Positions 19,074 to 61,818 of a stretch of DNA of 64,000 nucleotides are shown in pieces (the first letter of the stretch is position 1; the number at the start of each line of letters is the position of its first letter). A program made the translations under genes and the position numbers. Origin of the DNA: Lutjanus erythropterus (taxonomy: Eukaryota; Chordata; Actinopteri; Lutjaniformes; Lutjanidae); assembly GCA_020091685.1 (NCBI GenBank), contig CM034600.1, forward strand, positions 12,814,438-12,878,437. Reading direction: 5' to 3'. The notes below the pieces were generated by a model. The model ran no database searches. It saw only the letters and a list, made by a program, of their open reading frames with translations, and was not told the origin of the DNA.

Positions 19074-21192
19074 AGGTGTGAGGGTCAGCTGTCACATTGA
19101 GCCTTACAGGAGGAATCAGAGGGTGGGAGGATGTGCCAGAGGGAAGCTGGAGCGGATGTGGAAAATTATGCTTGCCCGCTATTTATTCATCTCTTTGTCC
19201 GTATACATTTATTTAAAAACGTGAAATCTGTCTCTGTTTGCAGCTATCGAGTGTTCTGCCTGCTGGGTGATGGGGAGCTGTCGGAGGGCTCGGTGTGGGA
19301 GGCCATGGCCTTCGCCTCATATTACCAGCTAGACAACCTGGTGGCCATCTTGGACATCAACCGGCTGGGGCAGAGCGACCCGGCTCCGCTCCAGCACCAC
19401 GTGGAGAAGTACCAGCGACGCTGTGAGGCCTTTGGGTGAGCAAGGGAGGAGTCGGAGGGTGAGGGTGGTTTGAGGGAACATGAAAAGTATTTGTGCATCT
19501 GATGAGTCCATGTCCATTGTGCAGAAATTATCAGACAATTAGACAAGTAATTCATCTAAAGATTATGAGTCAACAACAGCTTTGATAATCAATGAATTTG
19601 AAATTTTATTGAGTAAAAATGTCAAATATTTGCTGGTTCTTTACTCATAAATTTTGACTTGTTTCTTTTGTTGCTCTGTTTTATGTAATTGAGTTTTTAA
19701 ATCTTGGTTGGACAAAACGAGCAATTTTATCACCTTAGGCTATTGGAGATTGAGGTGAACATTTCTTTCTACTCTGATATTTAAAGACTAAATTAAGAAT
19801 CATGTAATCAAACAGATACCATCAGATTTCTCAATAATTAATCACTAGCTCCTGCTTTTTTTTGTGTGTGTTTTTTGTCAGTGTGACAAATTAAATATAA
19901 TGTAAAAATCAAAGTGAAGATGTCTGTCCCTGATTGTATGATGGTAAAACCTGTATTCTCGAACAAGTGTCGAGTGGGTTTTCCCTGTTCCAAAAATGCA
20001 TTTTAATATCACCTCCTCTTCTTCAGTCACCATGAATTTAACTGTGGTCTTATGTTCCACAGATTATTTAACTTTTAAGAGACTGGTATGGATCCCTTAA
20101 AATTTTCTGAGGAAAATGAGGAATACTTGAGTAGCTAAGGCCAAACTCTTCCTGATGGTAATTTTCTGCATCCTTAGGGATACATGGATGAAAATTCAAG
20201 GGGAACCTTAGCCTAAGTGGTTTTGTTTACCAAAATGTGTTTGAAACAAAAAACTATGAGGTTTCACCTGCTGCATGTCATCCCTCCATCCAACACTTGC
20301 AGAGAACTGATATGAGCTAAAATGCGAATATGCTGCGACAGTAAAAAGATCTGCAGCACCATCACAAATGAGGTGAAAGGTTGTGTTGATTTTAGGAGCC
20401 TGTGGGCATTCCAATAGGATTATTCCCTTAAAAACATTACCCAGAGTTACATTCATCCGGGGGGCCAGAAGCCATAGCATCACACCTGTGGGACTGAGTT
20501 TAAAGTTTGATCTCTTCTGTTTTCCCAGCTGGCATGCCATCATTGTGGACGGCCACAGTGTGGAGGAGCTGTGTAAGGTGCTAAGTCAGCCCCGCCACCA
20601 GCCACTCGCCATCATTGCCAAGACTATCAAGGGCAAGGGCATCCCAGGTATAACAATCAGGCACGCACAGTGATCTGCAGTATGTAAGGTGCAGTTTTAA
20701 CCTGTCAGATATATAAGTAAAGTTCTTTCCTTGTTGATGCATGAAATGTGTTATTACCCACCAGCTTTTTTTTAGGAAGTTTTGAGTCAAAAATGCCATA
20801 TATCTATCATGTGTCTCTCTTTCAAACTGTGATATCAAACTGTCAGTGAATATAACATATTTCAAGCAGAACAATTCAAAGTAATCCTGACACCAAAAGC
20901 CTGTTTCTAAACGATGACTCGGTAAAACGGTGACAACTGACTGGGAACAATACTCCTGTCAGAAGTTGTCTTAACTGCAGAGGGGACCCACCGTCAGTGC
21001 AGAGGGGCCCTAACTCGCTATAATCCAGGCAGCGCTTTAGTGCTTTAGCTGCTGCATCTCTGTAATCCCTCAGAATGTGTAGGATACACTGCAGCAGCAG
21101 CCCATTGTGCTCGTGTTGTGATAACAAGAAGGGAAGTGTGTGTGACCACGTGTGTTTGTAAGAGGGAAGGGGACACAAAGAAAGGTAAAAAG

Positions 21193-36699: not shown

Positions 36700-39600
36700 C
36701 TAGCTCCTGTACTCATCCCCGCAGTCCCCGATGAGCGACATGAGGTCCCTGGAACGCCGTGTCACTGCTTCGATGGCGGCCAGGTCTTCCTCCATCAGCT
36801 TCAGGTCAGGGCTGCAGCTACGCAAACTGTCACTGATGTGTTGCCCTGCCCCTGCGATGCCTAGCCGACAGCCCACAATGACCCCGCCCACCGCGGGGCG
36901 ATCCAGCACGTAACGCGTTGCCACGCTGGCCACTGAGCAGTCGTGTCTCTTGGCAACGGTCTCCAAGGTGACAAGGAGGTCCTGGAAAAGGCTCCAGCCA
37001 CCCCAAGTGTCGATCATGTTCTTGTACTTAGAGAGGGAGGCGGTGTAGAGCTCCGCCCTGGAACTAGGCTCCACCTTGCCCAGATAACGCTCTGAGAGTA
37101 GACCGCCAGCTGAGAGAGGGATGGAGGAGAGAGGCAGATGAAGGAGTTAAAGGAGGCAGAGTGGATGGAGTGAGAGGAGAAGTGGGAGGAAGAGGAGGAG
37201 GAGGAGGAGGATGGAGCGAAGAGAATGGTGGAGACAGAGAAGGATGGAGAGGAGGAAGTGGATGAAGCGAGAAAAGGTAGAGAGAAAAAACAAGACAGGA
37301 GGAGAGAAACAATGGAGAAAAAAGAAGGTAGAGATGGAGACAGTTGAGGTCAGGAGGAGGGCGTGATGCAGAGAGGGATGGAGAGGAAAGAGTAAAGATG
37401 ATGGAGGGGGAGGGCAGAGGAGAGAGGATGTGTCGTCATGTCGACTGACTCCATTTTAGAAACCCTCCATTTTACATCTTTACATCATGATGATAAATGT
37501 GCCGCTGGACTGATATTCATTCACAAAAAAAATCTGTATCAGTTTAAGTGTACACTATATTTAGAATATTTCCATCACTTTACTTTGCTCTCAGACAGAC
37601 TTTTATGAAGGGAAACTGCGCTTATATGAGATAAATATCGCTCTCTTTAAACCAGCCACTAGAAAAAACTATAATTTTACCTCACAGAACACAGGAGTTG
37701 CTGGGTTACCGCTGTCACACAACAATACAAACAAAATTACAGATCAAGGAAGTGGGAGACCAACAACCTCCTGTGTTCTCTTGGTAAAACAACTGATTTC
37801 ACCCATGGAGTTTAGTGGGTTTGGAAAGAGAAATATTTGGCTTATATAAACAGCAGCTTCCCATCAGTGAAGACTGACTGATTGCAACGTAAAGTGGTAA
37901 AATATTCTAACTAAAGCACACACTTGAACTGTTTTTTTTTTAGGTAGGCATTTGCTAAAATACATTTTGTTGTTGACCCTGACTATAACAGTGTATTGTT
38001 TTGTTTTCTTGCTGGTACACCCTTCTGCTTCCCCACACTGGAGGCGTGCTGATCACCACTGATCTACTGTGGCTAGTACACTTACTACAAAGAACCTCAT
38101 CATTACAACCCCACCTCAATAAAAATGAATAAAAAAAAAAAAATTAATGAGTGGATTTAAAGAGATGTGTGATGTCTCACCAAGAGTGCCGTAAGTGAGC
38201 AGCTGAATGTTGTTCGCCAGACAGAACTGCTCCATCTTGGCTGCAGGTCGCTGGTCGATCACAGAGTACTGAACCTGTACAACACACACATTAAATACAC
38301 AGTTAAGAGATGCACTGACAGAGGCAAGGCAAGTTTATTTATATAACACTATTCAGACACAAGGCAATTAAAATGCTTTACAAGAACATAGACATACATT
38401 AAAATAAAACAAAAGATTAAATTATGGTTAAAAACATTACAGAAGGATGAGAGAAAAATGATGAGGGTCTGACAGTGTGTTGTACTGTACTAACATGCAG
38501 GTGGAGGCGTTACCTGGTTGCTCGAAATGCGAATGCCTCTGTTGGTGATCTCCTCCAGCCTCTGTGTGTCGAAGTTAGTGAGGGCAAGCTCTCCTGAGGG
38601 AAAACAGGTGGATGTCTTTTCAGAACAAAAATAAAAATCCTAGAAACCGGGAAACAGATCCACAAATTCTTTTTCAACACTTGAGGTGTACTGCCTTCAG
38701 AGAATACATGTAACTCCTTTATATACTCTCTATGATCCTTATAAGGTTCTCATCATCATGAGAACCTAAATGTAAGAAAAGTGTAAGTCTGCTGCTGATA
38801 TTGATATTCAAGAGTTAGACAGGATATATTAAAGGTTAAACATGCAAAATAATTCAAATCAGGTTGATCTTTGAGTTTATTTTTTGACTTTTGGAATGGC
38901 AGCTTGACAAAAAATAAATTCTCAGCACAAGGTTGATCAAGTTGTTGTTTCGGAGACTTTCAACCACACCTCATGGCCTTTCTCAGCAGTTGCTGTAGTT
39001 GAAATGTGGTTGAAAACATTAGAAACAAGTATCCAGATACTTGTTTCTAACCTTGTGTTAAGATTAATGTTGATCACAACAGCTGATGAAAATCATGAGA
39101 TGCTGTGGAAATCCCTTTAAAAATCCAGTAAGTGGACTCACCATTTCCAGGTCAAGAATGATCTCAACTCTCAGTTCAAAACTATGTAAAATATAGCCAT
39201 AAAATATTCATATGTTACAGTTTCTGAACGTACTTTATATACAAATACTGATACTGATATGTCTGTGGTGATAAGCCAGTATCAGCCTGTTCATATATTA
39301 GTCTGAGTCTAATATTTGTGTCTGTGAAGGTAGAGAAATTAAACATAAACTGGTCAGATAGTGTCCAGGTGTACTATGTTACTGTATGTTTATCTGTACA
39401 TGTTTATAGTATGGTATATTGTGTATACGTACGTATAAGACCCTCCTGCTGCAGGTCTGACAGGTGTCCCAGTGCGTCCAGGTATCTCTTGTCTCTATAG
39501 TCCCACCAGTGGAACTGAACACAGTCCAGACTGTCCACCTGCATGCGGGACATGGAGCGCTGAAGCGCCTTCTCCACCACCTGCACACAGAGACACACTT

Positions 39601-41032
39601 CAGCCTCAGTTTCTACGTTCAGGAGTAAAAATACACTGGCCCTTTAATTAACAACGTGAAACCCATTCAAGTTTCATTCAACCTAAATGTTCAAATACAG
39701 ACGTCTCTCTGTTTACTTCAACACTATCATACTTTCAATTTATTTCTGCCTTCTGATAGTAACTTTTTTAAAAGGGCAACTCCATCTACGTTCTTTTCTT
39801 TTTCACTCAGCCACAAGCAGTGATGTAGATTACTGCATTGATGCCCTCCCCTCCCTCAGCCTAGGGGGTTTATACGGAGCAGCATCATCATTTGAAAAAC
39901 TTCATAAAACATGGGCAGTTCAACAAAAAATTTATTGTTCAGATTTTAATACATAAGGAATAGTACTGGGAAGCTAGAGAAAGATCTAAAAAACTAAAAA
40001 AAAAAAAAAAACCCAAACAAACAAACAAACAAAATATGGACCCGTGCTTCAAAGTAAACAAACATAATATAAAACAAAATATTTTGAAAAGGATTCATTT
40101 GATTTGGGTTTTTAAGAGGACATTTTAGAGTAGAAAAATACTTGTCAGTAGTCTCTGGTGAGTTTCCACCTCATTTGACAATTCTGTACTGCAATTCCTA
40201 GTTACTTCTCACCCATATACCAATATATCTGCAAAAAGTTAATATTTGTCAATATATCAATCTAGCTCCAATACAGTGTGCGCATGTTTTCTGCGCTTAG
40301 CTGTGAATCTGACAATCTAAATATTTTAACATAAAGAGAAATATGATCCTGGGTTGCTTATCTTTGTATGAATACTATGTTTTCAGAAAATCTCATAAAA
40401 AGGACACAGAGAAAATTATTTAACAAAGAACTGTAGCTTCACATTTCTAAAGTAAAGCAGTGAGGTGATGTCCTAATTGGTTATAAAGACACACACTGCT
40501 CTCTAGTGGATAAAACCGTTCTCACTGTAAAGCACAGCAGACCAAGTGTGAGTCACTCTTTCTTGTCCTCACCCATCTGTCAGTGTCTCACCTTGCGGTC
40601 CATTGGTCCTGTTCTTGGCACGTATTTGGTCAGACCCTGCAGAGCTGGGCAGTCTTTCCCAGAGGACCTGCACTTCAGCTACAGATCAGATAAAGAGTCA
40701 TAAAAACTTGCTTACTTATTACAACGCTAATATCTTGCAAATTCTTAATTACTGCACATTAGCTTTTGACCATTTACTGATGCTAAAACTACTGTAAAGC
40801 AAAATATTTAAAAGAATGCAGGAGTTCAAAAGTATCTGTTGATTGGCTGATTGTACCAGTGACAAAGAGCCTGAAAAACACCATGTGAATAGTGAGAAAA
40901 GCTGGTTGGACAAGAGGAGCCCTCTGTGTCTCTCTGCACATTTTTCCAGGTGGATGGCTGAGACGACGGTCGATACCATTAGACTGTCACAACACATTAA
41001 CCACAAAACTCTGATCTGAGCCACACTGGGAC

Positions 41033-41111
<79 letters not shown>

Positions 41112-42135
41112 AGGCAGAAAAAGCATTACCTAGTTCTCATACTTCTGTGAATGCTTGTGTGTGTGTGAGTGTGGTGTGAGAGCATTTCTTAATGTGTGTG
41201 TTGAATGTCTGCAGCTCTGTGGAAAACACACACACCAATTTCCTGATGTAAAATCAATAACCAGGCAAGGCAGAGCTACAGGAATACACTACGATATGAA
41301 TGACAAACTGTGTCCATCATACATTTTTACTTTGACAAAATAATTTCCTGGAATTCAGGAAGTTTTTTTCTACCTTACATACAAGAAAAAATTTGAACTA
41401 TTTAAAGGATTTTCTCCATCTTGGCTTCAGCATTATTACCAAACCTAAAATGTCAAACACACACCTGCACACACAGGCCTCTGAAGCATTACGTTCAGCC
41501 TACAACATTACATTAGCTCCCTCTTGTGTTTGAAATCTTAAATGTCTCTCCAGATAATTCCAGTTATAAGTTAAACTTAAACCTCCATTAATTATTATTA
41601 TCTCCAGTGTTATATCATGTAAATGTTGGTCACAGAATGGCTACCCCATTACAATCTGAGATAATGGCACAATAATTGTCAAGGACCTTTGCTGCATGCC
41701 TTCATTCATTCTGAAATCATCACAACCAAACTAAACGACATGATTCAAGTATCACAGTTCATAATGGTGGTAGGAAGCACTGCACGGCTCTGATGGCTGG
41801 TCCGACAGGTGCTGTTTGGTGAGGCAGGTGAAAGAACAAAACCACAAAATCCAGTAGGTTTAATATTAAGTGATGCAGACAACAGTAGGGAAAAAACAAG
41901 GCACTCTATTCTTCAAGCACAGGGAAACAGTCGGACCAACACATATTGACTGCAGGTCTTCATCAAGGACATGGAGTGGCTTTTTAGATCTGACTGTTTT
42001 TAAACAATTACCATCTTTGCCACATTATCAACCCTTATAATGATGTCATGTACTGAAACAATGCAAACTGCCAGTAAGTCTGTGTGCATGGGTGAGCAAA
42101 GTGAGTTCTTATTTAATCACACTTGCTCATTGAAA

Positions 42136-42188
<53 letters not shown>

Positions 42189-43037
42189 CTGGCTGTTGAA
42201 GTGTCCAAATATTTCCTCTGCAGGCCCATAGATGTCTGCCATGTCAAATGTGGTCAGACCTGCATCAACATAGGCCTGCATGGCCTCAACTGGAGAGACA
42301 ATGGGGAAACATTTATTGATGAAATGTATTATTATTGTTGTTAAAAATCACAATTTTAAGATATGCACCAGGCAGTCAGAGAGAATGTAGTTTGCAAAAT
42401 GATAATGTTGTACTACTAACATGCAAATAACTTAGTGTCTGTAGTAAATCTACCTTTGACCGCTGTTTAAAATGCTTTCATGATATTGTTCAAACCTTTC
42501 CAGCCTGTTTTACACTGTAAGACACAGCTTTGCTACACAACTGGAAAAACTTTTTGCAGCTTGTCTCCTTTGACTGAAGGGAAACTGAACTAATAACGGG
42601 TGTAAATAATGATACTAATTAAGATTCAGCTACATTCAGGTCAGAGTCAGGGTGCTGCTTTTGTGCATGTTGGTTCGCTGGAAAGGCTCTGATACACTAA
42701 ATGGAACAGGACCTTAATTAGTATCATTAGTAACACCTGTGTTTATAAGACTATTTTATATCAATTTCTCTGTTGTGAAAAAAAAAAAAGTTTATTATCC
42801 ATAGCCACATTTGAGTGCAGTCCAGAAGCCACTCGTGTTTACTTCGTGTGTGTTTTACAACTGCTTTTCTGAACTGGCACGCTCGTTTTTATCCCCACGA
42901 TATTCTGGGTGGGTTAATCTTTTACCAGCTTTGTTTTTCTCCACCGCTCCGTGAGCCCCGGACACCTGCCACATCCCGTTCAGCACCCGGCAGACCTCCA
43001 GGCCTCCGGACAGTCTCACTTTGGGCACCGGGGACAT
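36700..43037 (-). CDS. Aldo-keto reductase, complete, 7 exons
   Basis: NADPH-type aldo-keto reductase fold protein, 343 residues, probably cytosolic. Exons in transcription order: 42926-43037, 42189-42289, 40592-40678, 39433-39580, 38514-38593, 38181-38274, 36700-37109 (1032 nt with TAG). All donors are GT and acceptors AG, and phases join. The four AKR catalytic residues are visible: Asp53 and Tyr58 in FDMADIYG, Lys89 in LTKYVPR, His124 in VQFHWWDY. Further features are [17 protein letters not shown] and the [14 protein letters not shown] loop, then VIVGCRLG near the nucleotide-binding end. The start [12 protein letters not shown] is the first in-frame ATG of the exon. It resembles fungal, bacterial and fish AKR homologues of unknown substrate more than the classical AKR1 enzymes; I cannot name the paralogue. 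Introns hold several MITEs and a CA repeat against one splice donor. Confidence 0.9.
37110..37430 (-). repeat. Homopurine/homopyrimidine tract before the last reductase exon
   Basis: On the plus strand almost pure A/G (GAAGAGGAGGAGGAGGAGGA and neighbours); on the transcribed minus strand this is a C/T-rich tract of about 300 nt running into the acceptor of the final exon at 37109. Low-complexity, non-coding. Confidence 0.8.
37536..37932. mobile_element. Long-armed palindromic MITE, family A, copy 2
   Basis: TATCAGTTTAAGTGTACACT and ATCACTTTACTTTGCTCTCA at the left; CATCAGTGAAGACTGACTGA, GCAACGTAAAGTGGTAAAAT and CACTTGAACTG at the right, in inverted orientation. Same family as 27498-27911. 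In the last intron of the aldo-keto reductase gene. Confidence 0.75.
38321..38440. repeat. Teleost repeat 'GGCAAGTTTATTTATATA'
   Basis: AGGCAAGTTTATTTATATAA then ACACAAGGCAATTAAAATGC and TTTACAAGAACATAGA follow the consensus of a ubiquitous fish SINE/LINE-tail repeat. In reductase intron 5. Confidence 0.6.
41034..41105. repeat. (GT)n microsatellite
   Basis: About 70 bp of GT (CA on the transcribed strand) in reductase intron 2. Confidence 0.95.
42138..42188. repeat. (GT)n microsatellite abutting a splice donor
   Basis: On the transcribed minus strand this is a CA run that starts inside the 5' splice site of reductase exon 2 (exon ends at 42189; the intron reads GTACACACACAC). Confidence 0.95.
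42551..42790. mobile_element. Palindromic MITE, family B, copy 3
   Basis: The right arm CTTAATTAGTATCATTAGTA, ACACCTGTGTTTATAAGACT and CTCTGTTGTGAAAAAA faces a more degraded left arm (ACGGGTGTAAATAATGATAC, TAATTAAGA). Matches the 15524-15760 element. In reductase intron 1. Confidence 0.65.
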
Positions 43038-44419: not shown

Positions 44420-49042
<4,623 letters not shown>

Positions 49043-49340: not shown

Positions 49341-51388
49341 TAATATCGTGGGACCGCTTAACTAAAATTCTCCACAATACACATCTATTTTTAAAATAAA
49401 CATTTTTACCATCAAACTTTTCAGCTTCTCTCTCGGAGACTCAATAGACTGGCCTTTGGACTTATTTTACCCCGGTCAAGAGCTATAAACCATAAGTTAT
49501 GAATAAATATATGACTTGCATTTTAACACAATTATTTATAGACCCATTTTCAGCATTATGTATGCTGTTGTTATACATAATATTATACATACTTTTTTAC
49601 TCTATATTTCTTATTTTCTATATATTATGGTATAATGCACATTTTTTTCATCCTGTATTTCCCTATGCTCATTACTTCCCTTCTTAGTTGGAGCGACTGT
49701 AACGTAACCCAATTTCCCCCCGTGATCGATAAACTATTTCTGATTCTGATAACAGAAATGCCAATCATTTTCTAACCATCAGTATAAGAAATATTCGAAT
49801 TCGCATTTTAGTGTAATATTTACAATTATGAGTCTGCTCGATTTAGGTCCTAAAGCCATCTAGGTATTAAAAAAGTTCTTTCATTTTTTTGACTGGTTGC
49901 AGTTTTTTGTCTTCCTCATCTTTTCCATCTGGGGTGCTCGGGACAAACTACTCTTAATGCTAAATGGACCAGTCTTTTACCCTTTAAAGAGTCAGCTCCC
50001 GAATGAATACAGTATTAGTTACATTCCCAACCAAAAATAGACTTAAACGCATGAAAACTGTGTGGACCACAAATACAGGAATCTGTAATGAAAAATAATT
50101 TTATTCTTAAATCCAAGTACATTTCTTCAATATTTCAATGTAGAGACACAAGATGTCAAATGACTCAAGTTCAGATTGGTGTTTGTTACCATAATATGAA
50201 GAATCATCACTGCAATAAAATCAGTTAGCTGTCATTCAACATGAACATTAGTTTCTTTAAAAGCCTACCTGTCAAGTAATGTCTAGCGAGCTACAATGAA
50301 CTTTCATATTGTGTTGATTTTAGAGGCTCTTGTAGACAAAAAGCGATAGTGTTTGCACAACCATAACCACAAATAAATTTATCTAAAGAACAATCTCATC
50401 CTGCTTTGTTTTTTTTTTTGACTAACTCACTATCCGCTGTAACTTTGCTTCGGAAAAAGGTATGCAACTATAAACTGATCTTCCTGCTGATTGTGCCTTT
50501 CAGTTATGTGGGTCATATAAAGGCATCAGTACAAAACACTTTGATAAGCAATTAAAAACTCCTTGCAGCAGGTTCAAGAGCAAATCATATGGGGAAACAA
50601 GGGTCTTTAGATTCACTGCAGCATCTTTAAAGCTTCACTGAGCAATAAAAATGAGAAATATTAACACAATGTAAAAAGACTAACAAACATGGCGTTTACA
50701 AAAAGCTGAAAAGGTGCAGTTACATTCAATTCACTGACAGGTGACCTAACACAGTCCATCTGCACTTAGTGTACAACATAAAAATAAAATAAATTACATG
50801 AAAAAATTGCTTACAAAAATGTACAGTGCATTTTCAGTCATTTGACCTTCTTTGCTTTAGGCACCGAGTATCCATGCACTCACATAACGACATGCCTGCC
50901 AAAGACTGCAATAAATATCAAATTTTTTGCATCAAGAGAAAACACATCCTTCATTGCTGATTCATACAGATTACATTTTACAGCACTGAATTATGCTCAA
51001 ATACAAGTCTTTATTATATGTTGTTTTTGGAATGCAGTTCAGATACTTTGTGTGAAGGGCAAACAGGAGCTGCCTTTCACTAAATAAATGCAGTCATCTG
51101 AACTCACATCCACAGAGAAGTCACAACAGAGCTCTATTCTAGAGTTTGCTCTATTATTCTGAGCAGACTACTCATTTTCAATATACATTTGATATATTCT
51201 GTTGCTGCTGAATACCACTGCAAGGTAAATTCAGCCTAATATTTGAAAAATGTCAAGTCAGGTCATGAGTTGTGTTTCTAGTAAGCAAGGATGCTGAGTT
51301 TCTGTTTAATGAAATGTGACAAGTATGAACAAGCAAGAGTTTTTTGGGTGGAGGACAACATAGTCAGACCAAATTGTTACTTGACTTA
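49340..51388. other. Intergenic DNA and 3' UTR of the MYB-hAT gene
   Basis: No coding exon between the nsun5 promoter and the stop of the MYB-hAT gene. On the minus strand AATAAA occurs at 51010-51015 and 50100-50105, so the MYB-hAT 3' UTR could be about 0.4 or 1.3 kb. The rest is AT-rich with no recognised repeat. Confidence 0.5.
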
Positions 51389-54300
51389 TCAGTGTTTGGC
51401 AGCCCCACTGGGCTTTTTAGCAGTCTTTGGCTTTAAAGAGTTTTTGTATAGAAGCAGTCTCTCTGTGGTGTGAGGTGGCAGGCGGTTCCTCTTGGCTTTT
51501 ACAATGCATGCTGCCATTGGACACAGCCGGTCAAAGCCCCCTGAGGTGGCCGGTACTGCCAGCAGCTTCTTGGCGATGTTCTGGAGCTGGGGGAACCGAG
51601 TAGCAGATTTCCAGTACAACACAGTGGAGGTGTTTTCCAGGAGTGGTTCGGACAGGTACACATCGAGCTCAGACATTTTCATGGTCTTTGCTGGCGGCTG
51701 GAGGAGGTTAAAGGTGGACTTGCGTTTGAGGTCATTTCCACCATCATAGTTGTCATCTAAGTTGTCACCTGATGCCTCCAACACTGTGTTGGTATGGTTC
51801 TCTTCTTCACCAGTCTGCTTCTTTATCAACTCTGTGGTTGTCTGGTCTTTATCTGCCTCTACAGAGGGAGATGCTGAGGCCTCCGTGCTTCCTAACGTGG
51901 CTTCCACAATGGCACGAGCCTGATCCTTTGATGGAGGCATTAGGAAACCTGTCTGGTCCTCAGGTTTGGCATCAGAAAATGGCTGGAAAGAAATGTTCAA
52001 GTTAGGGTGAGAGTTTGGATATGACATACTGTTTTCCTTAATGTAATGTCTCACAGAAATGTTACACAGAGCTCAGTATAAACACAGAGCACTACAGAAA
52101 TTAATATAAAGTGGGAAAAGATACCACTTGATTCAACAGACAAAACAAAACTGCCATGCTTTTGGCCTAATTCAGCACCTTGAGTTTGATCCTGGGGTCG
52201 AGCACAGCAGCTAGTATCATGTCCTTCTGGTGAATCAGGGACTGGAAGTGTGTGTGGAGGCCGGTACGAAGAGCCTTGTTGAAGTGGGTGTAGTTGTTGT
52301 CAAGGCTTTCCAAAGTCTTATCAAGGCTGACAAGGGAAGGTATGATGAAAGATATGGTCACTCCATTACCTTGCAGGACCTGGGTTAGAAGAGGCAAAAG
52401 GAAATTATCTCACAAAATCTTCTACCAACAACACCACCATATAATATGGTTTTTCCCTAGATGTATACAATACTTTTAAGCAGCAAAACAAGAAAAAGCT
52501 CTAATTCTTGAATCTAGGTTCAATAGAAAAATGACAAAATACAACAATGTTCTGCAAGATTAATGGATTTATTATGTTTTTTGTAACAGAACAAATATCT
52601 GTTACCAAATAAGCCAATATTGCTACAGATTTTTTTTTTGAAGAAGAAGAACATGTACCACAATACTATTTTAGGACTGTGTTGCTTAAAGTGCATAAGT
52701 ATTAAGGACGATGGTTAAGTGATGACAACCCTCTATATTTTTTTCTCAAGATGACAAATTGATTAATTGCCATAATAACTGACAGGGGAAAAAACTGTTA
52801 AAAAAATACTATATATACTCCACTGCATTCATAATACATGAAATTCTCATTAATGTTGTCTTTTACCTGCAAGGCCTCCCCAAAGGGCTCAAGGACAGCC
52901 AGGATGTCAATCACTTGCTCTCTCTTGACCATGACCAGAGGGGGGACGCTGGCTGTGTCACTGGCCTCTATTCGAGCCTGGGCTAGAAGAGTCATGATGG
53001 GGCTCCAGGCAGACTCCTGCACCATACGGCGTAAGGATACCATCATGGAGTTCCAGCGACAGTTAATGGAGGAAGGGCACAGGGATATGTTGCACTCCTT
53101 CATTAAAACCTAAACGATAAATAATACAGAATGGTCATGTTAAAACAATTCAGGATGGAAAAATCTGATCTCTGTCAATCTGTTAAAAATCATATAAAAA
53201 TTGTAATGTCAGACCTCACTTTAACAATTTATGAATGTATTACTGATGTTAATTAGCTGTGACTTTGTGGTTTCGCATAAATGTTCAGCTCAGAAGCAAA
53301 ACTTTCTAATCAATACAGCTGATGTCAGTTAATCAAATGAAGGTTGAGAAAACATCTGATTGTCTATTTCGTCTACCTCACTCCAGTAGGCGCTGTTCCT
53401 AAAGAAAGCCACCACATTATGGACCTGTGAAAGCAGGTTTTCCACAACCCGGGAGTTCTTCAGTGCCTCCTTAATCACAAGCTGTAAGGTGTTTGCCACA
53501 CAGCTGGTCCTCATCCCAATCTGCAGCTCTGAAAAGGGGGACTCTGTTTCAGACATCTGGTCTGACAGAAATGTCACCATCTCGTCTCCATCAGGTTCTC
53601 CCCTGTTAGATGAGCACATGATCTTGAAGTCGCAGAACAGGTTGTTTCCAGCCAGGATTTCTTTGGCCTGGTTGGTGAGGATGTAACCAATGCTGTGAGG
53701 AAAAATGCCATAGCTCAGCAGCACGCCTTCAAGCTCCCTGGCCACAGCGGCACTAAGGTCTTTGTGGCTGAGGTGACGGAAGGCCACAATGGGACGGCGG
53801 ATCTGCCAGGAATCACTGACAAAGTGGAGCTGCACAACGACAATGGGCTCCTCTACTGGATGGGACTGATCCCCTGCCCAGAGGTCAAAGGTGACATGTA
53901 TTGCTCTCTCACCATCTTTGGTTTTGGAAAGGCAGGCTTTAAGGTCACGGATGAGCTGAGGTTTGATGGTTCTCTCCACATCATCATAGAGCTGCAGGCC
54001 CAAAACCCGCTGGGATAGTTTGTTGTATTCAGGGCTGATGGTGCTCATGAATGACCTGAAGCCTACACCTTCAACAAAACTGTGGGGAACAAAGTGGAAA
54101 ATATATTGGCACTGTGCATTTTCAAATGATACGCATGATCTAGAGACTGGTGATTGTCCATTTGGTAGACATGTAGAATTAAAAACTTGCTTACTGCTGG
54201 AGTAATTCAACAAATACACAAAAATAATAGGGAGGATTAACAAACTTGGTTATTTTGGCAGCACTGGACAGTTACCAAACAAAGACACAGAAACAGCCAC

Positions 54301-56880
54301 TGGCATTACAAGTTACCTGAGTGGCAGCATGTCTTCAGCGATCATTCTCAGTGCTGCATCAACCAACTTCTTCTGGTCTACTGGTGCAGCTACTGGTGCA
54401 GTGCCTGAGCTGGAGCTGGGACTGGAGTTCGAACTGGGGGGCAAGGAGGGACTAGGGGAGGAGAGCTCTCTCTTGGGTGCTAAAGTCTGTGGAGGCGGAA
54501 CGATCGTCTTATGCTTGAATTTCTGAGGCTCCATCTGTGGCTCCTTCTGCTTCCTCTCTTCCTCTTGCCTGATCTGCAGCAAAATAAGAGAGTGAAACCA
54601 AACTAGCCAGCTGGAAACATCATGTAAAAAAATATAAAAAGATTTTGAAATTTTTCTGTGGCAGTCATGTATCCAAGCCCTCTTCTAACAGTCAACACTT
54701 ATCACTTTATTGCATTGGCTTTGTTTGGGGGAGTATTTGTTGCTAATTTATCTGATGCAGCTATGTTTAAAATGCTAAAAGTAAAAGCAACTGAGTCATA
54801 AAACAAAATAATCTATAGCAAACTTACCACTTTAGGAATTACTGGTTCAGTGTCTAATACAACATCACACTTGAAGTCTACCTGTAACAGAACATATGTC
54901 AATGCACAATAGTGTTTTTGCTTCGAAATATTAGAAAAACACCAAAACTTTTCATTTTCTTTTACAGTGTGACCAGCAGACTACACAATAATTAGATAGT
55001 ATAGTATAGTATTGATTTCATAATATGTAACATCTTTTTTAAACTGTAACCAACATTTTACCTGCTACATCCCTACAATCATTTATCAACTATCAAAATC
55101 TAATTAGTTTATTATTCATTCCAATCTGTTCATTAAGAAATCACTGAGAAGACAAAATGTTTATTAAAATGGCAGAAATTTATAAAAGCTGAAAACAAGG
55201 AGCCTTATACAGTATGTGCTAAACTCAGTAAGTACTCTACCTCTCCTTCCACAAAGTGCTGAATATCAAGGGAAATGCTGTCAGCTTTGTCTTTGAACAA
55301 TCCCAACTCTGCTCTACGTTTGATGCTGCTGTTCCAGTGATTTTTTACAGCATTGTCCGTCCTGAAAGAGCAATTGAAACTGTACATTAAAATCTCTGCA
55401 TCATCTCTGGTTAAGACAAGCTGATGCGTTGCTACATTCACCCACTTATTTCAAGAATAACAACCAAATAATTCATCTGGCTGCCCGTCATCCGCCTTGT
55501 TAAATTTAATCAAATTAATCACCAACCCACCTTCCAGGGAGCAACCTGGCAATTTCAGCCCACCGGTTTCCCAGAAGGCAGTGGGCTTTGTATATGATGA
55601 GATCTTCTTCATTGGTCCACGAGCTCTTTTTGACCAGTGGATTAAGGTGGTTGTGCCAGCGCTCACGGCACTGTTTGCCCATCCGCCCCTGCAAGTGCTT
55701 GGCTATCAAAGACCAGTGTCTGGTGCCGTACCTTCCCACCAGGTCTATTATCTGTTTGTGCAAATACATTTAAAAACACAGGAATATAGAGTGAGATAGA
55801 ACAATATTAACTACAAACTGTGTTTAAGCCATGTCTGTATCAGATGTTCTGTGCATTTTTTTCACCTTTTGATCTTCCTCTTTAGACCAGAAGCCTTTGA
55901 TTAATTCAGGATCCAGGTGCTTCTTCCAACGGTGCATACACTGTGATTCTGTCCGCCCCTGTCAAGGCAACAGGAAATGTCTTCATAATGCATTTTATAA
56001 GTTCAGTGACCTGAAAGACATAATAAACATACTTACTGGTAAAAAACTGGCAATGGTTTTCCAATCTTTTTTTCCAAAGTTGTTGATCAAGATTTTGAGG
56101 TTTTCATCCTGCACATGAGAACATATGAGTTCAGATACAGTGTAGTTAATTGTGAGCTTTAAGGTAAACTTTCAGGTACAGGTTAACATGTATACAGTTT
56201 GTTACTTTATGACAAAATGTCTGAAACAATACATTACATGCAGCATTACACTTTAGTCCCTGACACCAATGTAATACACTATGTAAAATAAAGGCCACAT
56301 GATGTGGTAAAACAAAAGATTATATGTGGTCATTTTGATAAAGATTGCAATATGATTCATGATTAGTGGGAATGATCATTTTTGCATTCCAATTTTCATT
56401 TTCACTGAAAAAAAACAAAACAAAAAAAAACAAAAAACAAACAAACAATTAAAATCATGATTATGTGATATTTGTTGAGTGTCTGTGCCAGTCAAACGTG
56501 TTTTCTTACATCTGGATAACAACATTTGTAGCCCAGGGCATCTCTGCATCACTACAGTACTTCCTTATAATGATATTTTATCAGACATTTTTCCTTTATC
56601 AAAAAATTTCACCGATATTTGGATATTGCATGATTTTGTGAATATTTCAATTAATTGTGCAAACCTGCTTGAAATTAGAGTGTGTTGCTCAAGATAATAT
56701 CAACACATGAATGTCTGAAATATACTTGTGGGTGTTGTGAGGACAACAGCTGCTGAATGTCTTCTTGTCACTCACCTCTTCCAGAGTCCATTTGATTTGA
56801 CACTTAGCACCATCCTTCTTCTCTGCTGAATCCGATTCGTCAGTGTCCATGCATGGATTACTATCTCCCTCTTCTTCCAT
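51389..56880 (-). CDS. MYB three-repeat DNA-binding domain fused to hAT transposase body (domesticated fusion gene)
   Basis: Probable nuclear DNA-binding protein, 887 residues. Exons in order: 56776-56880, 56037-56108, 55866-55958, 55531-55751, 55241-55361, 54828-54881, 54317-54573, 53377-54079, 52867-53109, 52179-52379, 51389-51982 (2664 nt, TGA). Residues 30-180 form MYB R1R2R3: Trp31/51/70, Trp83/103/122, Trp135/154/173, with Cys118 in KQCRERW. Residues 205-285 are a charged and Pro/Ser-rich linker. From about 292 ([14 protein letters not shown]) the sequence is hAT/ZBED-like: TFDLWAGD (Asp373), ILTNQA where the family has [13 protein letters not shown] where the family has a His, CRWNS (Arg560-Trp561), [19 protein letters not shown], and a dimerisation region at about 795-873 ([22 protein letters not shown]). 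There is no BED finger. The MYB half is most like MYBL2. A catalytically inactive, host-used protein is inferred; expression is not shown. The exon 10 donor (GTGCTG) is weak. I know no established name. Confidence 0.85.
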
Positions 56881-58300
56881 GCTGCAACAATACAGATATC
56901 TAATAATTAAAATAACATTTCAACATACAGGGATTGTTAGGAGTGAAAAGACATCTTAGCATATAAAGTGTACATTGATATAAACATATGATATGGTTGA
57001 TGTGGACTTTACAATGATACTGTTGAGTCGTGTAGAATTTGTGTATCGTCACAAGTTTCAGTTACAGGTGTAAAAACTTGTCTGAACCTGTTTGTCTAAA
57101 TGCTACATTCAAAGAGACCCCCAGCTTGAAACACTATTAGAGCACCACAACTGATTCAGTGATAGACTGCAGCAAAGATTTAACACAAATATATACCACA
57201 ACATCAAAGTCTACAGTGAAGTCAACAATGCATGCAGATAACAGACAGGAGGTATCCAGTAGTGATTTATGAATTTAACAGTTGGACAATTACTTGGGCA
57301 AAGGAAAAGTTCATATTAACCCTGTTATCTCTCATGCATCCTGCTGTAAACACTTGTCCTATATTTCCTCTGTCACCATCATCTCTTTTGAATGTTAACA
57401 CGTTTCTCCCATCCAGAATGACAGCAACTCTAATCTAAAATCATTACTGGCTAGTGTTAAACATACTGTATGTTATGTTATAATGTGAAAAATAATCCAG
57501 GTGAATGATGTCTTTTCTTACATACTGTAGCCTGCTCACATACTGAAGCAGCATAACCCAAGGTATTTCTCTCTTATATTAATTAATAAAAAACTCCGAC
57601 TAATACCATGCAAGATGACCATGTATAGTTGATTGTAATGTGTATGGAATAATGGAATTATAATGGTTTATACTATATGTTTTGGTGTTGGCATTATATA
57701 TCTTTTAAATAGCCATCGGCCGCCCACCCCTCTAAATATAAACTTTATTCATTGAAAAACCTATATCGGTCGACCACTAGTACTCAGAAGGAATCACACA
57801 AGTATAGGAAGACACATTCAGTGGCCACTTCATTATGACACCTGTAAAATGTAATGGAATCAAACACAATAGCTCTGCCATAAATCTCATGAGGATAACA
57901 CTGTTCAGTTTTGTTAGATGCTGCTATAGAGGTATTAATTTAACTGTATGTTTGTTAAAGAGGTTGCCGTTTGCAGTGGTGTAAACTGGGCTGCACGATA
58001 TTGTAAAGTGTTTTTAACGTTTTGCTATTAATACTGCTACATGTAGAATCCAATTTTATTCACCTATCTTTTTAGCTGTTAGCTTACAAACAAAACGCGT
58101 TACATCGAACTGATTAACAGTGCGCGGGGAAGCTCTTAAGATAAAATTATTGCAATTAATTAAGCAAAAAAAATGACTGAAAAGTTAATTAATTTACATT
58201 CCAACTTGGCTGTAACTTAAAGCTAGCAAACTTGACTAGCTTGGCTGGTTTCTCACGAACACGCTCGAGGGAAACGTTAAGCGTTAGCTCAGAGGGTCGG
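56500..58300. other. First introns of the MYB-hAT gene; AT-rich DNA and repeat fragment
   Basis: Between coding exons 1-2 and upstream of the ATG-containing exon there is AT-rich intronic sequence. The fragment at 57715-57780 (CATCGGCCGCCCACCCCTCT, CCTATATCGGTCGACCACTA) belongs to the repeat family seen at 16605-17105. No further exon is recognised. Confidence 0.4.
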
Positions 58301-58450
58301 TCGCCTCTAGCGGCAAATGAGTGCTACTGCAACACCCCTGCCCGCCGTGGAGCAACATTTATATAGCGTTAGTCGAAAATGAGGTGTTTGTGACCACTTC
58401 GATGACAAAGTTAGCTGGCATGACGGTAGGGAGAACACAGAAATGCCTAC

Positions 58451-58600
58451 CTAAACCGCAGACTGTGTAACTGCTTCTGGAATACAGCCGGGTCCAGCTT
58501 TTCCAGCTCACTACCGTGACACAACAGAACAACAGAAACCTTCTCACTCACAACAAAACAAGGCACCCACTTGATTCACAACCCCAACGATGGTTGTATT
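58451..58600 (-). promoter_or_regulatory. Probable non-coding first exon and promoter of the MYB-hAT gene
   Basis: The coding exon at 56880 is preceded by an acceptor (TTGTTGCAG then C-ATG), so a 5' non-coding exon must lie upstream. On the minus strand a good donor occurs at 58451 (GTCTGCGGTTTAG followed by GTAGGC), close to a locally CpG-containing stretch, making 58451 to about 58560 a candidate exon 1. The start site is inferred only. Confidence 0.45.
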
Positions 58601-59020
58601 TAAATTACCGGCGGCTGTGAGGCATCTTTACAGCCACATGCATTTCTTTGATAATAAGGCAACATTAACATCCACGAACGCTAGGTTATTGTTTTCCACA
58701 CTTACCCGCGCGACATCCCTCTTCTGTCTATCCACTCTGGGGCTTTCAACTGCTAAGCTAGAGTTAGCTGGAATAGTTTGACTAACAACTACTGAAACAA
58801 ACTGTCTTTTAAGGAATACACAAAAGCGCGAATAACATATGCTGAATTAAATGTGTGTTACTTATTGAAGTAGGCCAGCTACAGAAGCAGTTACGGAACT
58901 CGTGGTGCTGTATCAACAGAAATTTACCCGGGAGTGGAAATCGGAGGTCTGTTCAAGAGCAGCACAGCATCAGAGCTACAACACACATACACACACACCC
59001 GGAAACAAACCATCCATGTG

Positions 59021-59056
59021 ATCAACGGTTCCAACCGACGCTAACGGCTAACGGTT
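59021..59056. promoter_or_regulatory. Cluster of MYB-type binding sites
   Basis: Within 36 bp: CAACGG (59023), CAACCG (59032), TAACGG (59042) and TAACGG (59049), the last two in tandem. These fit the MYB consensus YAACNG. The cluster lies about 0.45-0.6 kb upstream of the inferred start of the MYB-hAT gene. The equivalent stretches in repeat copies 2 and 3 have largely lost it. Confidence 0.45.
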
Positions 59057-61818
59057 GCTGTTGCACAGGTACAAGGGTTCCCTTCAAGCATCAAACTTAA
59101 CAAATCTGTTTAAAAATAATCTTTCTGGATAAAACATCCGTAAACACTGCTTTGACTCTTGTGCAAGGACACTAGTGAAGCATTAGAAAACATTTAACCT
59201 TCTTGTATAATCACTGGTGGGTCACTTATTTATGCTAGGCTACATTTCAAGCAGCTAAGCTAAGCTGTATAATCAAGTCAAATCTTAAAATAAGACCACA
59301 TAATCCTATCTTATTTTGTTCAATCAATACTAGGAAATACCTAAACATGAATCTACGATAGGATATTACAAAATACCTGGCTATTTCATTTATATCGATG
59401 TAACAGTTTCCTCAATGCTCAGTAACACTCACAAAATATTATTACACATTGTTCAAAAATAATAACAAAGGCAAGTTTGTTTAAATCTGATCTATATAAG
59501 TATTTATTTATTCATGGTTTGTCATCCCCAATATTCTGTCAAAGGACACATATTTTTTCACAGGTAGAGATCAAAATTAGCAACAGCCACGTAGTCAAAT
59601 ACTAGTAAAACAGTGGCTGGTGGATTTGTTTCACTTAGTAACCAAAAAAAGACAGTAGTCTATTTGAACAATCACTTGCCAGTTAGCCAGGGGGCAAAAA
59701 AAAAGTTGGGACTGGGACTGGGCATGTTTTGTGTCAGAATTCATAGCTTGTTAATTGTCCCTGCCTTGTATGTGTATACATTTAGGATGACAAAGATGAG
59801 TTACCATGTTACACTTGAACATAGCAAACCATTCCTGCTCTCTTTAACACTGTTACAAAGCAACTGTTGGTCCGTCACAGTTTGTACAGAAACTGTGTTT
59901 TCAACACTACAGGTCTTTCCAAGTTACAGAAAAAAACATATTATGAATGTTTATTTCTGACACAGCATCTGTACTGTACATCTGTACTCTGCACCTTAAT
60001 GCAGGGCAGCAAATTAGCACCAGCCAAATACTGATAAAATAACCAAGTATCTCTCCTGCTTCTGTTGCAAACTGGGGCTCTCAAATGCTAAGCTAGCTGG
60101 AATAGTTCATGCTAACTAACATCTACTAAAACAAGAGGCATTTTCAGATCAGCACAAAAGCTTGAATGACAAATGTTGAATTAAATGTGTGATTAATTGT
60201 TGAACTAAAGAAAATCAGAAGTCTGTCCAAGAGAACCACAGCCATACAGATACAAACACTCCCCGGAAACAAACCATCCATGTGACAGACTGTTTCACAA
60301 ACAGTGAGTGGCTGCTGTTGCACAGATATTAACTGGCCTTCAGGGGTTTCTATTCAGTACAATAACCAGTCTTAATCAAAGTTTTGTAGCATTATATTGA
60401 CTTTTGTAAGGGGACTAGTTCTGCATTAGAAACATTTATTAACCTCTTAACAAAATCACTGGTTGGTCACTTCTTTATGCTAGGCTAACAGCTAAAAGCA
60501 GCTAAAAACTGTTCAAACCCATAACTAGAGTGGAATCTTAAAATACGACCACAGAATAGCATCTAGCTGAATTAATACCAGAAAATACCAATAATAGCCC
60601 ATAATAAGCTTTACAAAATGCCAGTCTATCCCATTTTATATCAACACAATAATATTAATATATTTTCATAATAATAACAATAAAATTCTTTTCAAAACAT
60701 TTTGTCAAAATAACAACAAAGTCATGGTAGTTTTGATCTGATCCATGTAAGCATTCTATGTCCATGTATTTCAGGTTTATTTCTGGTTTGTCCTCCCCAG
60801 TATTCTTTCAAAGGACACAGTTACTTTGTCACATGTGGGTACACGTAGCCTGTGCTATGTTTTGTGTCAGAATTCAGAGCATGTTGATTTTTCCCTGCCC
60901 TGTGCTGTTATGAGGTCAAAGATGGATGGCAAGTTCAGTCCTGTTCACTTTGCCTGTTTGTACGTCATCCCTGCTCTCTTCAACAGTGTTGCTAAGCAAC
61001 TGTAGGTCTGTCACACTTTGTACAGTCACTCAAATCACTATTTTTCTCACATGCTATATGAGAGACAGAAACATATGAGTGTTTATCTGTCGCAGCTTCT
61101 GTATCTTAATGCAGGGCCCAAAGTTAGCACCAGCCAAATACTTGTAAACTACCTAAGTGTCCCTCCAGTCTTTGCACCAGATGCAAACCAGGGCTTTCAA
61201 ATATTTAGCTAGATGGAATAGTTTATGGTAACAACTGTTTCAACCAGTGCTAACAGTGGCGGTTGCACAGGCGAAAACTGATATCAAAACTTAAATAATT
61301 TGCTAAAGAGGCATTTCTTTTTAATATTCTCTGTTTGCTGTGGAGATAGGTCTGGCATGGTGGGACTGATTTTATTTATTTAATTTGCATGTTTAAGCAC
61401 AAGATAGTTTTTGATGCTAAATTTAAAAAAATGGTCATTATGCACATGCACATAACAGGAGCAGAGATCCAAACATTTCCACATGAGAAGAACGTTCACG
61501 TGTCTCAGATGTCATCTAACGCAATAGATCCGATTTTGGTATTGATCCGACTGACTCCAGTATCGATACTTCTTATTGGTAGTATTGATACTTTGGTGAA
61601 CAACCCTTATTTTATATCAGCCTCATAATATTTTACCATATTTTCATCAATGGTAAATTGATGAACATGCTTAATCTGATCTATCAAAGCATTTTATTTA
61701 TTTCAGCTTAATTTCTAGTTTGTCTTCCCCTGTATTTTGATATAGGACACTGTTATTTTGTCACATGTTGACCTGGATATGTTTTGTGTCAGAATTCATA
61801 GCATGTTATTTTCTCTGC

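What the first reader, a model, noticed from the sequence alone, without database searches (positions are those of the whole stretch)
51389..56880. Intact MYB R1R2R3 - hAT transposase fusion gene
Eleven exons join in frame to give 887 residues that start as a MYBL2-like DNA-binding domain and end as a hAT transposase with its dimerisation region. The usual BED zinc finger of hAT/ZBED proteins is absent and the MYB repeats occupy its place. Host DNA-binding domains joined to transposase bodies are a known route to new transcription factors (for example KRAB and BED-type fusions in tetrapods), but I do not recognise a MYB version. If real, it would combine MYB site recognition with a transposase multimerisation platform.
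Basis: partly seen in the sequence, partly recalled or inferred. Interest (0 to 1): 0.92.

Follow-up and report, generated by a model that had tools for sequence, protein, structure and literature searches.

The report
MYB–transposase fusion gene in fish
In what looks like a bony-fish genome, a duplicate of the cell-cycle regulator gene MYBL2 appears to have lost its own control region and gained the body of a dead jumping-gene enzyme, giving one intact gene that should read MYB sites but use a borrowed protein platform; no RNA or other fish genome could be checked here.

Summary
Eleven minus-strand exons (56880 to 51389), all GT-AG and phase-compatible, give an unbroken 887-residue frame: three MYB repeats, a linker and a hAT transposase body ending in Dimer_Tnp_hAT. 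An upstream exon (58716-58706) probably adds MSRG.

The MYB half is not a retrocopy: it shares intron positions with four other MYB loci in this genome and groups, with moderate support, with the mybl2-like one. No MYB C-terminal family (LMSTEN, Cmyb_C) was found at this locus, and no BED finger.

"Intact" needs correcting: the frame is intact, the enzyme is not. Against Hermes, D180 is kept, D248 is N, E572 is D and H268 is N; most hAT pieces compared from the same genome keep these residues. The hAT body was found once by DNA search and its long relatives here are 19-32% identical: probably an old, domesticated captive.

Best explanation: a host-transposase fusion in reverse of the prevalent kind. 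The host supplies the DNA-binding domain; the transposase supplies an inactive, probably self-associating body. It probably binds MYB sites without MYB's activation region. Transcripts and orthologues could not be tested.

The parts
58706..58716 (-). probable first coding exon (ATGTCGCGCGG|GTAAGT, giving MSR + split Gly); extends the protein to MSRG-MEEEGD...
   Evidence: inferred: consensus donor, phase 2 matching the acceptor that leaves one base before the ATG at 56880; one of 12 candidates listed, picked for the donor and the MSR start; the mybl2-like locus (L045) has a like candidate, MSWWAR+Gly
56776..56880 (-). exon 1 of the 887-aa model (acidic N-terminus, start of R1)
   Evidence: mybl2-like counterpart in L045
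56037..56108 (-). exon 2, R1
   Evidence: counterparts in the other MYB loci
55866..55958 (-). exon 3, R1/R2
   Evidence: acceptor uncertain in the C13 locus only
55531..55751 (-). exon 4, R2/R3
55241..55361 (-). exon 5, end of R3 plus about 24 residues
54828..54881 (-). exon 6, 18-residue bridge (least supported exon; frame is kept if skipped)
54317..54573 (-). exon 7, Pro/Ser-rich linker and start of hAT body; no in-frame ATG between the upstream stop and the acceptor
53377..54079 (-). exon 8, hAT RNase-H-like part: D373 kept, N444 at Hermes D248, C501, N504 at H268
   Evidence: only itself found by DNA search
52867..53109 (-). exon 9, hAT helical part with RWNS (W561)
52179..52379 (-). exon 10, hAT body
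51389..51982 (-). exon 11, acidic spacer, hAT dimerisation region, D841 at Hermes E572, stop codon
51010..51310 (-). candidate poly(A) signals after the stop: ATTAAA (first base 51310), AATAAA (first base 51015)
   Evidence: motif match only
46800..48267 (-). neighbour: nsun5 coding stretches downstream on the same strand
   Evidence: 47434-48267: NSUN5_fdxn-like E 1.8e-34, NSUN5_N E 3.3e-19; 46800-47045: Methyltr_RsmB-F E 4.7e-6, just under its cut-off

Best explanation
A duplicate of mybl2 captured a hAT transposase. Its first exons (R1R2R3) are spliced in frame to the body of the transposase in place of the MYB C-terminal half; the transposase's own BED finger is gone and its active site has decayed. 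The product is a domesticated host protein that most likely goes to MYB recognition elements through R2R3, self-associates through the hAT body, and, lacking MYB's activation, LMSTEN and C-terminal regions, competes with or modifies MYB/MYBL2 at shared targets rather than activating them. Shown by sequence: the frame, domains, shared intron positions, loss of catalytic residues, no MYB C-terminal family match at this locus, one DNA copy of exon 8. Inferred: one transcript, DNA binding, self-association, net repression.
For: Frame, splice sites and phases. Domains. DBD: fusion groups with the C2 mybl2-like gene (FastTree 0.90; IQ-TREE 85 for that split) with B-MYB next; 7 residues shared by fusion and C2 where C14 and C21 agree on another. 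The stretches [13 protein letters not shown] (R2) and KNHWNS (R3) are identical to c-MYB. NG86 dN/dS fusion:C2 0.221/3.446, dS saturated. LMSTEN found at C14 and C21 only, Cmyb_C at C2, C14 and C21 only. hAT half: exon 8 finds only itself by DNA; best-scoring other protein match 32%; over 343 columns 19-25% identical to 10 long relatives, longest branch in the tree (2.45), 28 of 51 near-invariant columns kept. Triad changed where relatives keep it: 13 of 14, 15 of 16 and 21 of 22 aligned rows have D, D, E, and 16 of 18 the CxxH H (my reading). No stop in 597 hAT-half codons, where a neutral simulation leaves 35.5%, 8.7% and 0.8% of replicas open at 0.02, 0.05 and 0.1 substitutions per site.
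Against: No RNA evidence for the exon 5-6-7 junction. MYB exon 5 read into intron 5 stops after 11 codons, followed by two AATAAA (0.56 expected by composition), so a MYB-only short isoform is possible. No orthologue could be examined, so selection on the fusion as a unit is not shown. The DBD tree is short (147 columns), support is moderate, and raw R2R3 identities barely separate C2 (85 of 107) from C21 (81) and C14 (80). The C13 MYB locus also has no LMSTEN or Cmyb_C match, so that absence alone does not mark the fusion. Short stretches of other hATs reach 43% identity. The last hAT intron may be the transposon's own. Structure prediction was never run. Nothing here shows the hAT body still self-associates.
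Confidence: 0.72

Rival explanations
1. Two adjacent genes on one strand: a truncated mybl2 duplicate ending in intron 5, and a separate domesticated hAT gene starting in exon 7 or in an unseen exon. The joined frame is chance.
For: MYB exon 5 runs into a stop after 11 codons with two AATAAA behind; exon 7 holds an in-frame ATG (QMEPQ); only one small bridge exon lies between.
Against: Exon 7 has no in-frame ATG between the upstream stop and its acceptor; no BED finger found upstream; a CpG-richer stretch lies before the MYB exons (only 57001-59600 was scanned for CpG, so one inside the gene was not excluded); junction phases fit on both sides.
Confidence: 0.13
2. A recent or decaying chimera: a degenerating mybl2 duplicate with a hAT insertion whose frame happens to be open, with no function.
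For: Longer DBD branch (0.27-0.38 against 0.17-0.23 for C2); catalytic residues lost; only one copy seen.
Against: No stop or frameshift in 887 codons; coding-type GC3; recognition helices untouched; the best-scoring hAT relative in this genome is 32% identical, so no recent source copy was seen; three introns inside the hAT body lie where 11, 15 and 20 of 26 relative loci read across in one frame.
Confidence: 0.09
3. The gene is expressed as a fusion but works as an activator or scaffold: the acidic spacer of exon 11 or a partner of the hAT body recruits coactivators at MYB sites.
For: Exon 11 carries an acidic, probably disordered stretch before the dimerisation region; ZBED6, a domesticated hAT gene, affects development and growth (PMC10027918 passage).
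Against: LMSTEN and Cmyb_C not found at C10. No dedicated search for activation motifs was made.
Confidence: 0.06

Closest known systems
Host-transposase fusion (HTF) genes of tetrapods, e.g. KRABINER (Cosby 2021, known here only through passages of PMC8616336)
   Same: Host exons joined by splicing to a DNA-transposase coding sequence; a likely new regulator
   Different: In the prevalent HTFs the transposase gives the DNA-binding domain to a host effector. Here the host gives the DNA-binding domain and the transposase has lost its own
ZBED genes (domesticated hAT; PMC3606216 passages)
   Same: hAT RNase-H-like body and dimerisation region kept as a host gene
   Different: ZBEDs carry BED fingers and, per that paper, keep the DDE residues; no BED was found here and two of three DDE residues differ
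MYBL2 (B-Myb)
   Same: R1R2R3, intron positions of the mybl2-like locus, closest DBD
   Different: No MYB C-terminal half found; a hAT body instead
DAYSLEEPER (plant domesticated hAT; PMC8616336 passage)
   Same: hAT dimerisation region, DDE lost
   Different: Has its own BED-type finger; plant; independent

Membership tests
Host-transposase fusion genes | host-gene exons and transposase exons in one open frame with splice sites | tested here: met
Host-transposase fusion genes | one transcript carries both halves | not testable with these tools
   no RNA data available
Host-transposase fusion genes | fusion conserved among related species | not testable with these tools
   G000 has no relatives here; a viral-contig scan for stray fish sequence found none
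MYB (vertebrate MYB/MYBL1/MYBL2) | three MYB repeats with the family's exon boundaries | tested here: met
MYB (vertebrate MYB/MYBL1/MYBL2) | C-terminal regulatory half (Cmyb_C; LMSTEN in MYB/MYBL1) | tested here: not met
   no match at C10 (nor at C13); matches at C2, C14, C21
Active hAT transposase | D-D-E triad and CxxH | tested here: not met
   D, N, D and CxxN at the Hermes positions
Active hAT transposase | terminal inverted repeats and target-site duplications around the gene | tested here: inconclusive
   15 inverted pairs in 50200-57000; several span the hAT exons (e.g. I11, 14 nt at 93%; I13, 13 nt at 92%) but I see none with a hAT-type end and take them for chance; ungapped search, no target-site duplications sought
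ZBED | BED zinc finger(s) | tested here: not met
   no Pfam BED match in the protein; regex scan
ZBED / domesticated hAT | hAT C-terminal dimerisation region | tested here: met
   PF05699 9.4e-8, profile 1-82 of 84

The most novel reading that the evidence does not exclude
A lineage of fishes carries a conserved 'reverse' host-transposase fusion: a MYBL2 duplicate whose activation half was replaced by a dead hAT body, turning a cell-cycle activator into a multimeric, non-activating reader of MYB sites that antagonises MYB/MYBL2. It would show that transposase bodies can be captured for their assembly surfaces alone, with DNA recognition supplied by the host.
Probability: 0.35. Interest if true: 0.78.

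Novelty: new variant of a known kind. Interest (0 to 1): 0.6.

Why it matters
According to the review passage seen, known captures mostly give host proteins a new DNA-binding domain from a transposase. Here the transposase seems to have been kept for its body only, with MYB recognition on the host side and a natural loss of the MYB C-terminal half. If confirmed it is a natural counterpart of a dominant-negative MYB, in a pathway central to cell proliferation, and it can be tested directly.

Tried and rejected
Viral contigs were scanned with hAT exon 8 for stray fish sequence: 19 pattern hits, none a relative. NCBIfam, made for prokaryotes, gave no family. Structure prediction of exons 8 and 11 was tried five times and never accepted because the machine was busy, so no fold search was made. 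YN00 dN/dS failed (math domain error) and NG86 dS is saturated or undefined for several pairs; I use it only as a rough sign of constraint. The first assembly of the C13 MYB locus was out of frame and was redone; its exon 3 acceptor was placed by alignment and is uncertain. I first took all four introns inside the hAT body as absent from relatives; a re-check shows this for three, while the last lies within a few residues of where the frames of L016, L017, L018, L023 and L027 end or turn into non-hAT sequence, with donor-like sequence in at least L017, L023 and L027, so it may be inherited from the transposon; 13 of 26 loci read across it. Synteny with other fish could not be tested. Paper searches: 10 of 10 used; listings were capped (for example 20 of 57,436, 15 of 140, 12 of 23), and none of the listed titles or abstract openings describes a MYB-hAT fusion in an animal. 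Cosby 2021 is not held. PMC12062965, PMC10027918, PMC3606216, PMC8616336, PMC8290160 and PMC11099167 were searched for terms (passages only); 'Myb' is absent from the main text of the first and third, appears in the second only for MADF and in the fourth only for Harbinger and a plant gene; the last two were not searched for it.
Full report
What was checked. The window lies in a 937.6 Mb genome of 444 contigs, G000:C10:12814438-12878437. I take it for a teleost from its gene content and size; no call names the species. On the minus strand, eleven exons between 56880 and 51389 join through ten GT-AG introns with matching phases into 887 codons and a stop.

Domains. Pfam finds three Myb repeats and the hAT C-terminal dimerisation region. 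phmmer against PDB matches residues 28-180 to c-MYB R1R2R3 and 76-182 to B-MYB R2R3, and the second half to Hermes in three consecutive stretches, of which only the last is strong alone. Pfam's hAT-like_RNase-H is below its cut-off (E 0.12), so the catalytic part rests on the Hermes alignment and on hAT relatives in the same genome.

The MYB half. A search of the own genome with the MYB half finds four further loci with MYB repeats of this kind, on C2, C14, C21 and C13. LMSTEN is found at C14 and C21 (2 matches) and Cmyb_C in 6 matches at C21, C2 and C14; neither is found at C10 or C13. The exon boundaries of the repeats at C10 have counterparts in the other four, with the exon 3 acceptor of C13 uncertain, so the MYB half came by DNA duplication, not by retrocopy. 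In a 147-column tree with two PDB chains the fusion groups with C2 (FastTree 0.90, IQ-TREE 85 on the split), with B-MYB next. R2R3 identity is 85 of 107 to C2, 82 of 107 to B-MYB, 81 of 107 to C21, 80 of 107 to C14, 79 of 105 to c-MYB and 72 of 107 to C13: close values, so the mybl2 assignment rests on the tree and on 7 residues shared with C2 against C14 and C21. At sites where C14 and C21 agree the fusion has 11 changes of its own against 6 in C2. The recognition stretches of R2 and R3 read as in c-MYB; that these are the base-contacting helices is recalled. C2 has a candidate first exon MSWWAR+Gly and the fusion has MSR+Gly at 58716-58706, both in the needed phase. I think this is the true start, though it is one of 12 listed candidates.

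The hAT half. A DNA search with exon 8 finds only itself. A protein search lists 42 matches (75 of 139 candidates scored); after the four exons of the gene itself the best by E-value is 32% identical over about 160 residues, and short stretches of the dimerisation region reach 43%. In a 343-column comparison with 10 long ORFs the fusion is 19-25% identical to each and has the longest branch (2.45). It keeps 28 of 51 near-invariant columns (55%); in a leave-one-out control two probable domesticated genes keep 41 of 68 and 42 of 68, and the other eight 49 of 58 to 51 of 52. Counting along the Hermes alignment (8edg), D180 falls on D373, D248 on N444, E572 on D841 and H268 on N504; that these Hermes residues are catalytic is recalled. 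Reading the motif table by eye, and leaving out rows out of register, 13 of 14 rows have the first D, 15 of 16 the second D, 21 of 22 the E and 16 of 18 the H; the exceptions to the triad are L011 (first D) and L031 (second D and E), both long frames that look domesticated. Some rows are copies of one another or the same place, so these are not independent counts. Of the four introns inside the hAT body, the first three lie where 11, 15 and 20 of the 26 relative loci have a single-frame alignment running across. The fourth, after LDPRIKLK, lies where 13 loci read across but the frames of L016, L017, L018, L023 and L027 end or turn into non-hAT sequence within a few residues, so it may be a transposon intron that was kept. 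The relatives are distant, so this is a weak argument for age.

Is it one gene? For: phases fit; no start codon before exon 7 in its frame and no BED finger for a separate hAT gene; no MYB ending before the hAT exons. Against: no transcript; the MYB exons can read 11 codons into intron 5 to a stop, with two AATAAA behind it where 0.56 are expected from composition. A MYB-only isoform is therefore possible beside the fusion. I give the two-gene reading 0.13.

How it works. Inferred from the anatomy: R2R3 places the protein on MYB sites; the hAT body, probably catalytically dead, is kept for folding and self-association; the MYB activation and C-terminal regions were not found, so it should not activate as MYB does and probably does not join the MuvB complex (the tether lies in the B-Myb C-terminus; recalled). 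Competition with mybl2 or myb at shared sites is the simplest outcome.

Place among known things. It fits host-transposase fusions by its structure, with the roles reversed: a review passage reports 106 tetrapod cases from 94 fusion events and calls host gene/transposase-DBD fusions prevalent (PMC8616336). ZBED genes carry BED fingers and, according to PMC3606216 passages, keep the DDE residues; this gene differs in both. My ten paper searches, in one open-access library and with capped listings, showed no MYB-hAT fusion in animals. Subscription papers and databases of predicted fish proteins, where it may already be listed as a model, were not searchable.

Noticed in passing
L051 (G000:C13:38778000-38787900), MYB exons about 8478 to 6597, minus strand: A further divergent MYB R1R2R3 locus with the family's exon pattern but no LMSTEN or Cmyb_C match on C13; it has the longest FastTree branch of the five.
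   Followed up: partly
L011 (G000:C22:17748493-17749092) and L031 (G000:C24:18182341-18183459): Long open hAT frames with BED-like finger sequence (read by eye) and altered catalytic residues: probable domesticated hAT (ZBED-type) genes of the same genome.
   Followed up: partly
window 55113-55205, minus strand: Stop codon 11 codons into intron 5 followed by two AATAAA: a possible MYB-only short isoform by intronic polyadenylation.
   Followed up: partly
L016, L017, L018, L023, L027, just after the LDPR motif: hAT frames that end or lose hAT sequence close to the fusion's exon 10/11 junction, some at donor-like sequence: a possible shared old hAT intron.
   Followed up: partly
window 36703-42347 minus; 19101-19436 plus: Other genes in the window: an aldo/keto reductase (three stretches matched) and a transketolase stretch.
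   Followed up: partly
window 44423-44968, minus strand: An open frame made of imperfect repeats of about 55 residues with [12 protein letters not shown] blocks, downstream of the nsun5 stretches; perhaps its last exon.
   Followed up: no
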